Made by a program: the position numbers and the translations under genes | Shown here: in pieces, positions 2,918 through 7,339 of the stretch | How the letters are laid out: the number at the start of each line of letters is the position of its first letter | Position numbering within the stretch: the first letter of the stretch is position 1 | Notes under the pieces: model-generated | What the model was told of the DNA's origin: nothing | Database searches by the model: none | Seen by the model: the letters and a program-made list of their open reading frames with translations, nothing else | Source of the DNA: DASVDK01 sp036381125 [NCBI: Thermodesulfobacteriota bacterium] | GTDB taxonomy: Bacteria > DASVDK01 | Length of the DNA: 7,484 nt | Direction: 5' to 3' | NCBI GenBank assembly: GCA_036381125.1 | Contig: DASVDK010000365.1 | Coordinates: forward strand, 1 to 7,484

Positions 2918-4423
2918 GTGGCCTCCGGGGTCGACACGCTCGCCGCGCTCTACGGCGGCCTCCTCACGGCGCTCTCGCCGGGGAACCTGCTCGCCTGCCT
3001 GGCCGGGGCGTTCCTCGGGCAGCTCGTCGGCATCGTCCCGGGCATCGGGCCGGTCGGCGGCATCGCGCTCCTGCTCCCCATGATCTACGGTCAGGAGCCG
3101 GTCGCCGCGCTCATCATGCTGGCCGGCATCTACTACGGCGCGATGTACGGCGGGACGGTCACCTCCGTCCTCATGAAGATCCCGGGCGAGAACTCCTCGG
3201 TCCTCACGGCGCTCGAGGGGTACGAGATGGCGAGGGCGGGGCGCGCCGGCGCCGCGCTCGGCATCGCCGCCTTCGGCTCCTTCATCGCCGGCAACGTCGG
3301 GATGCTCCTGCTCGCGCTGTTCATCGTCCCGTTGTCGGCCGTGGCGGTCGGCTTCGGGAGCGTCGAGTACGCGGCGCTGATGTGCTTCGCCCTCTCGGCC
3401 GTGTCGGTGCTCGCCGCCGAGGCCGCCGTCAAGGGGCTCATCAGCGCCGTGATGGGGCTCGCCCTCGCGACCGTCGGGCTCGACAGCGGCACCGGCGCGC
3501 TCCGCTTCACGTTCGGCATCCCCGAGCTGGTCGAAGGGATCGACTTCGTGGTGGTGGCGATCGGGCTCTTCGCCCTCCCCGAGCTCTGCGCCATCGTGGA
3601 GCGGCGGGGGGCCGGCGCGCTGCTCGAGCGCCACGGCTACGGTCGCCTGCGCGACCTCTGGCCGAGCGTCGCCGACTGGCGGCGGTCGGCATGGCCGATC
3701 GCGCGCGGATCGCTGATCGGCTTCGCCACCGGCGTGCTGCCCGGCGCCGGCGCCACCATCGCCGCCTTCCTGTCGTACGGCGCCGAGAAGCGGCTCTCGC
3801 GGCGACCGGAGGCGTTCGGCCGGGGCGCCATCGAGGGGGTGGCCGGACCGGAGTCGGCCAACAACGGCGCCGTCGCCGGCTCGCTCGTGCCGATGCTCGC
3901 CTTCGGGATCCCCGGCTCGGCCACCACGGCGATCCTCCTGACCGGGTTCACGATCGTCGGCATCCAGCCGGGCCCCCGGCTGTTCGTCGACCACGGGCCG
4001 GTCGCCTGGGCGCTCATCGCCTCGATGCTCGTCGGCAACCTGATCCTCCTCCTGCTGAACGTGCCGCTGATCGGGCTGTCGGTCCAGCTCCTCAGGCTGC
4101 CGGCCAACGTCATGGTGGCCACCGTGGTGATGGTGGCGGCGGTCGGCGTCTTCAGCCTGCGGACGAGCCTCTTCGACCTCTGGGTCCTCCTCCTCTCGGG
4201 CGTGGTCGGCTACGTCATGCACAAGGTCAGGATGCCGGCGGCGCCGCTGCTGCTGAGCCTCGTGCTCGCCCCCCTCTTCGAGCGCAACCTGCGGCGGAGC
4301 CTCGAGCTGGGCGGCGCGCCGATCTTCCTCGAGCGGCCGGTCGCGCTGGCCCTCCTGGCGCTCTCCCTGGCGATCTGGCTCTGGCCCGTTGTCGCCCGGC
4401 TCCTCGCGCGCCGCGCCCGCTGA
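2918..4423 (+). CDS. tctA: TctA-family large permease subunit of a tripartite tricarboxylate transporter
   Basis: This 501-residue polytopic inner-membrane protein is full length for TctA (about 500). It is the channel subunit that moves the carboxylate inward, driven by an ion gradient. The two TctA signatures are both present: GIVPGIGP at residues 38-45, followed by GGIALLLPMIYG and LIMLAGIYYGAMYGG, and the second-half counterpart GVLPGAGAT at 272-280, followed by FLSYGAEKRLS. The inverted-repeat arrangement typical of the family is therefore intact. The segment GPESANNGAVAGSLVPML and the following FGIPGSATTAILL are also strongly TctA-like. The GTG start has a G-rich Shine-Dalgarno (GGGAGGGG, 2904-2911) six bases ahead, and the N-terminus (a helix, then LSPGNLLACLAGAFLGQLVG) fits the family. 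It follows tctB by 24 bases and ends the operon; a convergent gene begins 20 bases after its stop. Confidence 0.95.
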   Translation: MASGVDTLAALYGGLLTALSPGNLLACLAGAFLGQLVGIVPGIGPVGGIALLLPMIYGQEPVAALIMLAGIYYGAMYGGTVTSVLMKIPGENSSVLTALEGYEMARAGRAGAALGIAAFGSFIAGNVGMLLLALFIVPLSAVAVGFGSVEYAALMCFALSAVSVLAAEAAVKGLISAVMGLALATVGLDSGTGALRFTFGIPELVEGIDFVVVAIGLFALPELCAIVERRGAGALLERHGYGRLRDLWPSVADWRRSAWPIARGSLIGFATGVLPGAGATIAAFLSYGAEKRLSRRPEAFGRGAIEGVAGPESANNGAVAGSLVPMLAFGIPGSATTAILLTGFTIVGIQPGPRLFVDHGPVAWALIASMLVGNLILLLLNVPLIGLSVQLLRLPANVMVATVVMVAAVGVFSLRTSLFDLWVLLLSGVVGYVMHKVRMPAAPLLLSLVLAPLFERNLRRSLELGGAPIFLERPVALALLALSLAIWLWPVVARLLARRAR

Positions 4424-4425
4424 CA

Positions 4426-4442
4426 CCCCGGACGGCCCGGGG
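4426..4442. terminator. Candidate hairpin terminator between convergent genes
   Basis: CCCCGG (4426-4431) and CCGGGG (4437-4442) form a perfect 6-bp stem around the loop ACGGC, in the 19-base gap between the tctA stop and the polyketide synthase stop. On the + strand the hairpin is followed by a T-containing tract (CCTTTCCGTTTTCC, 4448-4461) contributed by a repeat unit, which would help termination for tctA. There is no uninterrupted T run, and the - strand side lacks one altogether, so this is only a candidate. Confidence 0.35.
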
Positions 4443-4461
4443 TCAGGCCTTTCCGTTTTCC
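4439..4461 (+). repeat. Solitary copy of the GGGGTCAGG repeat inside the polyketide synthase 3' end
   Basis: These 23 bases match the units at 6367-6439 with two changes from the first unit: GGTCTTT has become GGCCTTT, and CCATTTT has become CCGTTTT. The second change is shared with the third tandem unit. The - strand of this copy reads in frame with the polyketide synthase and supplies its TGA stop (4445-4443). GGGG follows, giving a flanking 7-bp inverted repeat CCCCGGA (4426-4432)/TCCGGGG (4459-4465). Confidence 0.85.
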
Positions 4462-5543
4462 GGGGAGGTCGAGCCGGAGGCCCGCTCCGGAAAGCCGAGC
4501 CAGGCCCCCTCGGCCGAGAAGCCGGGGCCGACCGCCACGAGAATGCCGTGCGCGCCGGGCGGCGGAGGCCGCCTGGCGAGCGTCTCCTCGAGGACGAAGA
4601 GGATGGTCGCGGACGAGAGGTTGCCGTTCTTCCGGAGGACCTCCCGCGACATCCGCACCTGGTCGTCGGAGAGGCCGAGCCCCTTCTGCGCCACGTCGAT
4701 GACCCGCCGGCCGCCGGCGTGGATCATCCAGGCGGCGACCTCGTCGGGCGCGAGGCCGGCACGGGCGAGGAGGCGGCCGACCACTCCCCGCACCATGTCG
4801 CCCGCCACGAACGGCACCTCCCGGACGAGGTAGAGCTTGAGCAGGCCCTCGGGGTTCTCGTTGTCGTAGCCCATGATGTCGCGGTACTCCGGCCTCACGT
4901 CGGAGGCGAAGGCGCGAAGCGCGATCCCGGGGCCGCGATCGGCCAGCAGCGCCGCGGCCGCCCCGTCCGCGAAGATGGCGTTGCCGACGACGGTGCCGAG
5001 GTCGCGCTCGTCGAGGTGGTAGGTCGCGGAGCAGACCTCGGTGGCGACGACCAGCGCGCGACTCCCCGGGTGGGCCCTGACGAAATCCGCCCCCCGCTGC
5101 AGCGCCGACACCGCGCTGGCGCAGCCCATGCCGAGCAGGTTCGCCCGCTCGATCTGCCCGCCGCGGAACCCGAGCGCCTCGATGATGCGGGTATCGAGGC
5201 CGGGGCAGGTGTAGCCGGTGCACGAGGTGGCCACGATGCAGTCGACGGCGTCGATGGCGACGCCTGCCCGGTCGAGGCACTGGCGGGCCGCCTCGGCGCC
5301 GAGCCGGACCGCCCACTCCCGGTAGCGCCGGTTCCGCTCGCCGGGCGTCTCGTCGGCGGTGAAGGCGGCGAGGTCGGCAATGGCGAGCGCCCGTTCGTCG
5401 ATCGACTCGTCGAAGAACCGGGCGAGCCTGCGCTGAACCGCCGGAGACCTGTAGACCGTCCGGGCGTAGGCGAGGAGCTCGGACTGCCGGTAGCGATGGG
5501 GCGGGGTGGCGGTGCCGAGCGCGACGATGCGAGGCGCGTCCAT
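4443..5543 (-). CDS. Type III polyketide synthase (chalcone/stilbene synthase superfamily)
   Basis: This 366-residue thiolase-fold enzyme extends an acyl-CoA starter with malonyl-CoA units and cyclises the chain, without an acyl carrier protein. The catalytic triad is complete: Cys141 in NLLGMGCASAV, His275 in WMIHAGG and Asn308 in RKNGNLSSA. The VGPGFSAEGAWL segment near the C-terminus corresponds to the GFGPG loop of chalcone synthases. SCTGYTCPGLD (107-117) is also typical of bacterial type III synthases; the Asn in the third motif separates it from thiolases. Length is close to the 350-390 of the family. The stretch GYDNENPEGLLKLYLVREVP (225-244) departs from the better known alkylresorcinol and alkylpyrone synthases, so the product cannot be called. 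The ATG at 5543 has no good Shine-Dalgarno but a TAGAGT six bases upstream, perhaps giving a leaderless message. The final residues PENGKA and the stop are encoded by the GGGGTCAGG repeat. It is convergent with tctA and divergent from the DUF1054 gene. Confidence 0.92.
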   Translation of the reverse strand: MDAPRIVALGTATPPHRYRQSELLAYARTVYRSPAVQRRLARFFDESIDERALAIADLAAFTADETPGERNRRYREWAVRLGAEAARQCLDRAGVAIDAVDCIVATSCTGYTCPGLDTRIIEALGFRGGQIERANLLGMGCASAVSALQRGADFVRAHPGSRALVVATEVCSATYHLDERDLGTVVGNAIFADGAAAALLADRGPGIALRAFASDVRPEYRDIMGYDNENPEGLLKLYLVREVPFVAGDMVRGVVGRLLARAGLAPDEVAAWMIHAGGRRVIDVAQKGLGLSDDQVRMSREVLRKNGNLSSATILFVLEETLARRPPPPGAHGILVAVGPGFSAEGAWLGFPERASGSTSPENGKA

Positions 5544-5549
5544 GTCGGC

Positions 5550-5555
5550 ACTCTA
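5550..5555 (-). promoter_or_regulatory. Candidate -10 box for a leaderless polyketide synthase transcript
   Basis: On the - strand TAGAGT ends six bases before the ATG at 5543. This is the spacing seen when the A of the start codon is the first transcribed base. The absence of a Shine-Dalgarno upstream of this ATG supports the idea. No -35 element is recognisable. Confidence 0.3.
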
Positions 5556-5608
5556 CCGCGCGCCGGGAGGACCGGTGTGGTCCCCGCCCCGAAACGCGAC
5601 GCCCACGC

Positions 5609-5614
5609 TACAAT
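5609..5614 (+). promoter_or_regulatory. Candidate -10 box for the DUF1054 gene
   Basis: TACAAT, a near-consensus -10, stands out in very GC-rich DNA 23 bases before the ATG at 5638. It leaves room for a short leader carrying the purine-rich GAGGGAGGGA (5626-5635). No clear -35 hexamer lies 16-18 bases upstream. The 94-base gap between divergent genes is where promoters for both are expected. Confidence 0.4.
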
Positions 5615-5637
5615 GCGCACCCACGAGGGAGGGACGC

Positions 5638-6357
5638 ATGCGCGCCACGACGTCACGCGCCGGGACGATTGCGTTCGCCGGCTTCGAGCCGGCCGATTAC
5701 CAGGTCTTCGCCATCAAGGACTTCGCGAAGGGGATGGCGTCGCTCCGCGCGCGCGTCTCGCCGAAGCTGGCCGCGCTGGGCGAGGCGCTCGGGCCCCGGC
5801 TCTCGGCAGCCGTGGGCGAGCCGTTCTTCGCGCACGTGGCGAAGCACATGCGCCGTTCGGTCAACACGCCGACCGAGACCTGGGTCGCGCTCGGCCGCGA
5901 TCCGAAGAAGTACAAGATGTACGCCTTCCTCGGCGTCGTCGCGAGCGGCCGCGGCATCGACGTGCGGCTCGTCCTCAAGGACGAGGCCGCGGGCGACAAG
6001 CGGACGCTGGCCGACGCAATCCTCCGCGAGCGCCGGCGGCTCGCCGACCTGTTCGCCGCGCTCCCGGACCTCGGCTGGTTCCTCGGGCTCCCCGGCAAGC
6101 CGCGCAAGGCGGCCGAGCCGCCGCTGCCCGTGACCCGGCTCCCCGAGGGCTTCTGGGAGGAGGTGGCCGAGGGTCTCCGAACGCGTGCGGCGAGTCTCTT
6201 CGACGTCGGCTTCGCCTGGCCGCGCACCGACCGCCGCCTGGCCGGCCCCGAGTTCGAGCGCATGGCGCTGCGCGCCATGGTCTCCCTGTACCCCCTCTAC
6301 CGCCTCGCCACGACCCCCGGGGCGCGGCTCGACGGCCGGCCGACCCGCTCCGCGTAG
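5638..6357 (+). CDS. DUF1054 (UPF0637, YktB-like) family protein
   Basis: This is a 239-residue soluble protein of unassigned function. The match to the YktB family is recalled from conserved positions: a start with FxxxDYQVFAI, then RVSPKLAALGEALGPRLS, and above all HVAKHMRRSVNTPTETWVAL (residues 66-85), which mirrors HVAKHARRSVNPP-x-DTWVAF of the Bacillus proteins. A long middle helix (about 120-142) and a C-terminal FERMALRAMVSLYPLYRLA (206-224) resemble the family's terminal LLPLYR segment. Family members are about 205-215 residues; the extra length lies around 150-170 and at the tail. The ATG at 5638 is preferred over an in-frame ATG at 5506, because that one would overlap the divergent polyketide synthase and the Shine-Dalgarno (GAGGGAGGGA) sits just before 5638. 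No membrane segment or signal peptide is visible. A repeat array starts two bases after its stop. The family is best known from Firmicutes, so its presence in this high-GC background is unusual. Confidence 0.75.
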   Translation: MRATTSRAGTIAFAGFEPADYQVFAIKDFAKGMASLRARVSPKLAALGEALGPRLSAAVGEPFFAHVAKHMRRSVNTPTETWVALGRDPKKYKMYAFLGVVASGRGIDVRLVLKDEAAGDKRTLADAILRERRRLADLFAALPDLGWFLGLPGKPRKAAEPPLPVTRLPEGFWEEVAEGLRTRAASLFDVGFAWPRTDRRLAGPEFERMALRAMVSLYPLYRLATTPGARLDGRPTRSA

Positions 6358-6358
6358 C

Positions 6359-6444
6359 ATTTCCACGGGGTCAGGTCTTTCCATTTTCCTGGGGGTCAGG
6401 TCTTTCCATTTTCCACGGGGTCAGGTCTTTCCGTTTTCCACGGG
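6359..6444 (+). repeat. Three tandem 25-bp units of the GGGGTCAGG repeat with a leading remnant
   Basis: Units begin at 6367, 6392 and 6417, each exactly 25 bases apart. Each has a 23-base body opening GGGGTCAGGTCTTTCC, continuing with A or G, four T and CC, and the first two are followed by a two-base spacer (TG, then AC). A remnant ATTTCCAC precedes the first unit (6359-6366) and CACGGG follows the third. The first two bodies are identical and the third has one change (A to G at 6433). The unit is not self-complementary, so it is neither a palindromic REP nor a CRISPR repeat with variable spacers. All units have the same orientation as the solitary copy at 4439. The array fills most of the 130-base gap between the convergent DUF1054 and prenyltransferase genes. 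Confidence 0.92.
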
Positions 6445-6487
6445 CGGCAGCCGGCTCGTCCCGCGCTTCACCGCGGTGGGATCCCCC

Positions 6488-7339
6488 CTAGGTGCCCTGC
6501 ACGCGGCGCTGCAGGACGAGGGTGAGGGCGAAGCCGGCCACCCCGCCGAGCGCGAGCGCGCCGCCGCCGTGCAGGGCGATCAGGAGCCCGTCGAGGAGCG
6601 AGATGCCGGCGATGAGGCTCGCGACGGCGTGCGGGATGAACGGGGGCCTGCGGACCAGGAGCGACACGGCCCGGACGGTCCAGAGCGCGAGCGCCGCCGC
6701 GAGCGCCAGGGCAAGGAGGCCTCCGGCCGGCGCTCGCGCGGCGTAGTAGACGAGCGGGCCGGCCAGGCAGGCGAGCGGCCAGAGCCCCTTCACCTCGGTG
6801 AGGGTCTCCTGCTTCGCCGCGTAGGTGAGGCCGACCAGGTAGGCGAAGAGCGCCGCGGCACCGACGGCCGCCGCCCCGCCAACCCTCCCCGACGCGGCGA
6901 GGGCGGCCGTCACGTAAACGAGCACCCGGCAGAGCCCCATGAGGAGCGGGGAGAACGGGTTGCCCTTGTGCCACGCGTCGTAGACGACGACGGCGGCCCC
7001 GAGCGCCGCGCCCGCGCCGGCGGCCCGCGGCCCGCCTGCGGCGGCGACCAGGGCGAGGCCCGCGCCGAGGAGGGCGAACCCCACGGCGAACGCCTCGCGG
7101 GCGGCGACGCGACCCGACGGGATCGGCCGCTCGGGGCGCATCGCGGCGTCCCATCTCCGGTCGAAGGCGTCGTTGAGGAACATTCCGCCGAGATAGAACG
7201 CCGAGAGCGCGGCGACGAGCGCGCCGAGCCGGCCGGGTGACACCTGGCCGCCCGAGAGCACGACCCCGGCCAGGACGTTCGTCCAGACGGTCGGCAGGTT
7301 CGAGACCCGCCCGAGCTCGAGGTAGGCGCGGCGCCTCAC
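6488..7339 (-). CDS. UbiA-family membrane prenyltransferase (EboC-like)
   Basis: This 283-residue integral membrane protein of the UbiA superfamily would transfer an isoprenyl chain to an acceptor, usually an aromatic ring, using Mg-bound prenyl diphosphate at the inner membrane. The first Asp-rich motif is complete, NDAFDRRWD (56-64), followed by RPERPIPSGRV as in many UbiA enzymes. The helix-loop YDAWHKGNP (120-128) carries the conserved Lys125. At the second Asp-rich site, where DxxxD is usual, this protein has Glu178 and Glu182 (KQETLTEVKG). Eight to nine hydrophobic helices fill the rest. The opening LELGRVSNLPTVWTNVLAG and the MGLCRVLVY segment recall the EboC subgroup, from memory. The GTG at 7339 is the only start codon in this frame near the family N-terminus and has GAAGGAAG (7354 to 7347) before it; the frame stays open to the window edge, so a longer protein is not excluded. 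The start lies in a hairpin loop. Acceptor and prenyl donor are unknown. Confidence 0.88.
   Translation of the reverse strand: MRRRAYLELGRVSNLPTVWTNVLAGVVLSGGQVSPGRLGALVAALSAFYLGGMFLNDAFDRRWDAAMRPERPIPSGRVAAREAFAVGFALLGAGLALVAAAGGPRAAGAGAALGAAVVVYDAWHKGNPFSPLLMGLCRVLVYVTAALAASGRVGGAAAVGAAALFAYLVGLTYAAKQETLTEVKGLWPLACLAGPLVYYAARAPAGGLLALALAAALALWTVRAVSLLVRRPPFIPHAVASLIAGISLLDGLLIALHGGGALALGGVAGFALTLVLQRRVQGT

What the first reader, a model, noticed from the sequence alone, without database searches (positions are those of the whole stretch)
4439..6444. Polyketide synthase and DUF1054 genes bracketed by same-orientation copies of one short repeat
A 23-base unit lies at 4439-4461, and three more, with exact 25-base spacing, lie at 6367-6439. 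All point the same way. Between them is exactly one divergent gene pair, and both ends of the segment fall within a few bases of gene stops. Direct repeats around a roughly 2-kb two-gene segment suggest that it arrived as a unit or can be lost by recombination. From memory, CCTGACCCC-type short repeats are abundant in many bacterial genomes and are sometimes linked to Y1/REP-type transposases, which could spread them without a neighbouring transposase. That link is recalled, not shown here.
Basis: partly seen in the sequence, partly recalled or inferred. Interest (0 to 1): 0.6.

Follow-up and report, generated by a model that had tools for sequence, protein, structure and literature searches.

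The report
Ordinary intergenic repeats, not cassette borders
Four copies of a 23-base repeat sit in the two gaps where neighbouring genes end facing each other; they look like members of a known kind of small scattered bacterial repeat, and nothing found here shows that the two genes between them move as a unit.

Summary
Four 23-nt units lie at 4439-4461, 6367-6389, 6392-6414 and 6417-6439, all on +, the last three 25 bp apart.

The cassette reading is not supported. The two repeat sites are the two convergent gaps among the window's eight genes (TctA/type III PKS and DUF1054/UbiA). A divergent pair must lie between successive convergent gaps, so the bracketing is forced; two independent sites sharing an orientation means little. 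The left copy supplies the PKS stop codon.

The unit begins GGGGTCAG, fitting GGGGWSAS, the motif published for terminal repeats of TIRYT (Y1/HuH) transposases, some of which form scattered families (PMC3733652). The motif alone is weak: shuffles give 3.7 matches, 4 seen. Repeats with the same head and other tails occur in unrelated viral contigs, as arrays or inverted pairs; a scrambled control found none.

No host genome is held. The exact unit was absent from GTDB contigs and IMG/VR. No Y1 gene was found in 38 viral records searched, about 15 holding such repeats. Membership is probable, not shown. Ordinary; low interest.

The parts
4439..4461 (+). Single repeat unit; gives the PKS gene its last five codons (ENGKA) and its TGA stop
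6360..6444 (+). Tandem array, period 25, 3.4 copies, with a partial unit at its left end
6367..6389 (+). Repeat unit, commonest form
6392..6414 (+). Repeat unit, commonest form
6417..6439 (+). Repeat unit, 1 mismatch
4424..4442 (.). Convergent gap between TctA and PKS, 19 bp
6358..6487 (.). Convergent gap between DUF1054 and UbiA, 130 bp, of which 85 bp is the array
4443..5543 (-). Type III polyketide synthase (Chal_sti_synt); nearest NCBIfam model DpgA, 238 bits, under its cut-off of 425
5638..6357 (+). DUF1054 (PF06335) protein
2918..4423 (+). TctA, left neighbour
6488..7339 (-). UbiA-type prenyltransferase, right neighbour

Best explanation
The four units are copies of a small scattered intergenic repeat of the TIRYT/REP-like kind: a fixed head (GGGGTCAGG..TT) plus a lineage-specific tail. 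They were most likely copied into the genome in trans by a Y1 (HuH, single-strand) transposase encoded elsewhere, and survive mainly just behind gene ends, where they do least harm. One landed at the 3' end of the PKS gene and now supplies its stop codon; another landed behind DUF1054 and was multiplied to a 25-bp tandem array. The two genes between the sites are unrelated to the repeats. Shown: the units, their position and the stop codon; same-head repeats in other lineages. Inferred: the transposase, the copying in trans, the tandem multiplication and the selection on position.
For: Units and array. Both sites in convergent gaps. Published behaviour of REPs: most convergent-gap REPs lie under 20 bp from both ORF ends, and REP ends often give stop codons; terminal repeats of TIRYT genes share GGGGWSAS, some form repeat families, many as dimers or clusters (PMC3733652 sections 15, 16). 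Passages of PMC6006769: 20 of 26 TIRYTs fall in TnpAREP subclass 2.1, which takes 291 of 292 RAYT group 1 sequences. Same head with other tails in IMG/VR: 7 stretches with two GGTCAGGTCTT in tandem, 6 of them window-like and one (L014) not; scrambled control 0; L010 with five inverted pairs, 23-nt arms and 9-nt loop in the pairs tabulated; L035 with nine direct copies and two inverted.
Against: GGGGWSAS alone is not enriched: 4 matches against 3.71 expected. The exact unit (four Y/R forms) was not found in GTDB contigs or IMG/VR, nor a looser form in IMG/VR. No Y1_Tnp in 38 viral records, though most are fragments. 0 of 11 plasmid Y1 loci had GGGGTCAG inverted repeats; several had GTAG-like ones. 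The window has only direct copies and no strong hairpin (DNA fold z-scores -1.5 to +0.7), whereas TIRs are by definition inverted.
Confidence: 0.7

Rival explanations
1. Cassette: PKS and DUF1054 came in, or can be lost, as a unit between same-orientation repeats.
For: Direct copies on both sides of a 1.9-kb two-gene segment; PKS codon usage deviates about 4 sd.
Against: The bracketing is forced by convergent-gap placement; orientation agreement of two independent sites has even odds; the left copy is inside the PKS coding end; TctC, outside the segment, deviates nearly as much and DUF1054 not at all; no transposase or recombinase among the eight genes; by reading, no flanking target duplication longer than 4 bases.
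Confidence: 0.07
2. Local functional elements: the units are transcription terminators or protein-binding sites for the convergent gaps.
For: Both sites lie behind gene ends; one weak terminator-like match at 6388-6400.
Against: Two terminator-like matches in the region against 0.8 (sd 1.0) in shuffles; no stable hairpin; no Rfam match.
Confidence: 0.12
3. Plain tandem-repeat growth of a chance sequence plus one related copy, with no mobile origin.
For: The array is a simple period-25 repeat; minisatellites with GGGGTCA words are common in other hits.
Against: A 21-of-23 match 1.9 kb away is not explained by slippage; shuffles give no match; same-head repeats recur in other lineages.
Confidence: 0.08

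Closest known systems
TIR repeats of TIRYT transposases (TIRtrons; TnpAREP subclass 2.1, RAYT group 1; PMC3733652, PMC6006769)
   Same: GGGGWSAS at the end of the unit (GGGGTCAG), short unit, clustered copies, intergenic
   Different: No transposase or inverted pair in the window; the window's copies are all direct; published TIR sequences are in figures that are not held, so no letter-by-letter comparison was made
REP sequences with GTAG or CGTC tag (PMC3733652)
   Same: Position next to 3' ends in convergent gaps, stop codon supplied by the repeat, tandem (head-tail) arrangement known
   Different: No GTAG/CGTC tag at the unit's end and no palindrome within the unit
REPIN-like inverted pairs in viral contig L010
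   Same: 13-base head GGGGTCAGGTCTT, 23-nt unit, intergenic
   Different: Another tail, and inverted pairs with a 9-nt loop

Membership tests
TIRYT terminal-repeat family | Motif GGGGWSAS in the repeat | tested here: met
   All four units start GGGGTCAG; these are the only matches on both strands, but shuffles expect 3.71, so weak
TIRYT terminal-repeat family | Inverted copies flanking a Y1/HuH transposase gene in the genome | not testable with these tools
   No host genome held. No Y1 family among the window's eight proteins; 0 of 38 viral records
TIRYT terminal-repeat family | Many dispersed copies in one genome | tested here: inconclusive
   Two sites in 7.5 kb; genome-wide count not possible; exact unit 0 in GTDB contigs
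GTAG/CGTC REP | Unpaired GTAG or CGTC tag next to a palindrome | tested here: not met
   No tag at the unit ends by reading; no stable hairpin
REPIN | Two units in inverted orientation forming a hairpin | tested here: not met
   Four of four copies direct
Composite transposon or cassette | Mobility gene or target duplication at the ends | tested here: not met
   No such family among the eight genes; no flanking duplication over 4 bases by reading
Composite transposon or cassette | Empty site in relatives | not testable with these tools
   PKS query found no relative in genome contigs; both genome scans used

The most novel reading that the evidence does not exclude
GGGGTCAGG-headed units may form a widespread subclass of TIRYT-type repeats that spread as direct tandem arrays (25 bp here and in L009, 23 bp in L035) and not only as inverted pairs, implying that the single-strand transposase can make head-to-tail copies.
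Probability: 0.15. Interest if true: 0.45.

Novelty: new member of a known kind. Interest (0 to 1): 0.17.

Why it matters
It shows how two placements of a common kind of repeat in convergent gaps can look like a bracketed cassette. If membership is confirmed, the head-plus-variable-tail pattern could help to trace which Y1 transposase spreads which repeat across lineages, and tandem arrays would need explaining.

Tried and rejected
Host genome: not held. Relatives by PKS protein in genome contigs: 124 stretches matched a peptide pattern, none encodes a relative. Exact unit with Y/R in genome contigs and viral contigs: 0 and 0; looser form in viral contigs: 0. The 16-base start of the unit gave 6 viral stretches, none of which continues with the window's tail: taken as chance. 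Plasmids and phages with the array: 6 plasmid records at E about 9, no phage. Plasmid searches with the L010 and L009 repeats: only E of 1 or more. Window segment 4427-7345 in plasmids: 6 records, all matching only the UbiA end of the query, best coverage 18%. PKS and DUF1054 proteins in plasmids: distant relatives only, all under 60% identity.

Three-unit arrays of GGGGTCAGG in viral contigs: 26 stretches. By my reading only L035 and L040 resemble the window clearly; most of the others are 7-, 12-, 13- or 14-base minisatellites and I do not count any of them as support. In one search, L014 was set aside for the same reason, leaving 6 of 7; L008, L009, L011 and L012 look like one lineage, so these are about three independent cases. 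In one search (10 stretches), 4 were already known.

The alignment holds 11 hand-picked units chosen because they carry the searched head, so its invariant columns are no evidence.

Literature: searches for GGTCAGGTCTT (14 papers), GACCTGACCCC (11) and GGGGTCAGG (183, 40 listed) showed no title about a bacterial dispersed repeat of this kind; none of those papers was opened. PMC3733652: abstract, section list, sections 15 and 16 and passages; PMC6006769: passages; PMC8266576: abstract and section list.

Full report
Observation. The right-hand group is a period-25 array of 3.4 copies at 6360-6444. It is poorer in G+C than the window: 54% against 74%.

Surroundings. The window encodes, by Pfam: a citrate-binding/CoA-ligase beta-type fragment, a CoA-ligase alpha-type protein, TctC, TctB, TctA (all +), a type III PKS (-), DUF1054 (+) and a UbiA-type prenyltransferase (-). 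Five gene gaps of 19 to 130 bp remain (TctC and TctB overlap, as do the first two genes). Two gaps are convergent, one is divergent. The single unit overlaps the first convergent gap and the end of the PKS gene; the array fills most of the second.

Why the bracketing is not evidence. Along a chromosome a convergent gap is always followed by a divergent one before the next convergent gap. Repeats that sit in successive convergent gaps therefore always bracket exactly one divergent junction. If two placements fall at random in the non-coding 293 bp, both are in convergent gaps with probability about 0.26 (149 of 293, squared; my arithmetic), or about 0.1 if the 85-bp array is subtracted from both. 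Published REPs favour this position: in two genomes most convergent-gap REPs lie under 20 bp from both ORF ends (PMC3733652 section 15). The array counts as one placement, so the agreement in orientation is that of two sites.

Left copy and PKS. The complement of the unit gives the last five residues ENGKA and the stop codon TGA of the PKS gene. The DpgA model ends at residue 348 of 366, so the end of the protein lies beyond the conserved part. Whether the stop was changed by an insertion cannot be said without relatives. The same paper reports that REP ends often give stop codons to flanking ORFs.

Repeats elsewhere. The exact unit was not found in genome contigs or viral contigs. Two copies of GGTCAGGTCTT within 3-30 bases were found in 7 viral stretches, a scrambled pattern of the same composition in none. 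Six of the seven resemble the window's arrangement by reading: L008, L009, L011 and L012 share arrays with 25-bp steps, L013 has two copies and an inverted one, and L010, a phage structural region (major head protein, head-tail adaptor and minor tail protein), holds five inverted pairs. L035 has nine direct copies and two inverted copies of another variant at 5095-5564, in what appears to be a convergent gap, though this rests on a simple ORF scan with overlapping ORFs. So the head recurs and the tail differs.

Link to a transposase. Di Nocera et al. (PMC3733652 section 16) describe Y1 transposases flanked by terminal inverted repeats, several sharing GGGGWSAS, with some of these repeats forming moderately abundant families in dimers or clusters. 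Passages of PMC6006769 place 20 of 26 such transposases in TnpAREP subclass 2.1. The window's units start GGGGTCAG. Against this: the motif is short and its count equals chance; no Y1_Tnp was found in 38 viral records, of which about 15 hold window-like repeats by my reading; and 11 plasmid Y1 loci found with RayT-type queries had no GGGGTCAG inverted repeats, one having a single GGGGTGAG on one side, while several had GTAG-like repeats. These plasmid transposases may simply belong to other subclasses; that was not tested.

Other readings. Codon usage gives no clear sign of a foreign pair. No stable hairpin, no clear terminator and no Rfam family was found.

Verdict. Membership is inferred from position, head motif and relatives, and remains open until the host genome is searched.

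Noticed in passing
L010:1-7381: Phage structural genes with five inverted GGGGTCAGGTCTT pairs in or near gene gaps, together with GTAG-like repeats (GTAGGGTGGGCTGAGCCCACC).
   Followed up: partly
L008, L009, L011, L012 and single copies in L017-L022: Viral contigs of similar sequence with GGGGTCAGGTCTTGAA units, in four of them in arrays; several have palindromic CTGTAC-type words upstream that look like SOS boxes (recalled, not tested).
   Followed up: partly
L037-L039, L045, L057, L059, L060: Minisatellites of GGGGTCA (7 bases) or GGGGTCAGGTCT (12 bases); probably unrelated to the window's repeat.
   Followed up: no
window 4443-5543 and 6488-7339: A type III PKS and a UbiA-type prenyltransferase (nearest models SCO3242 family and EboC, both under cut-off) lie close together; a shared pathway is possible but untested.
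   Followed up: no
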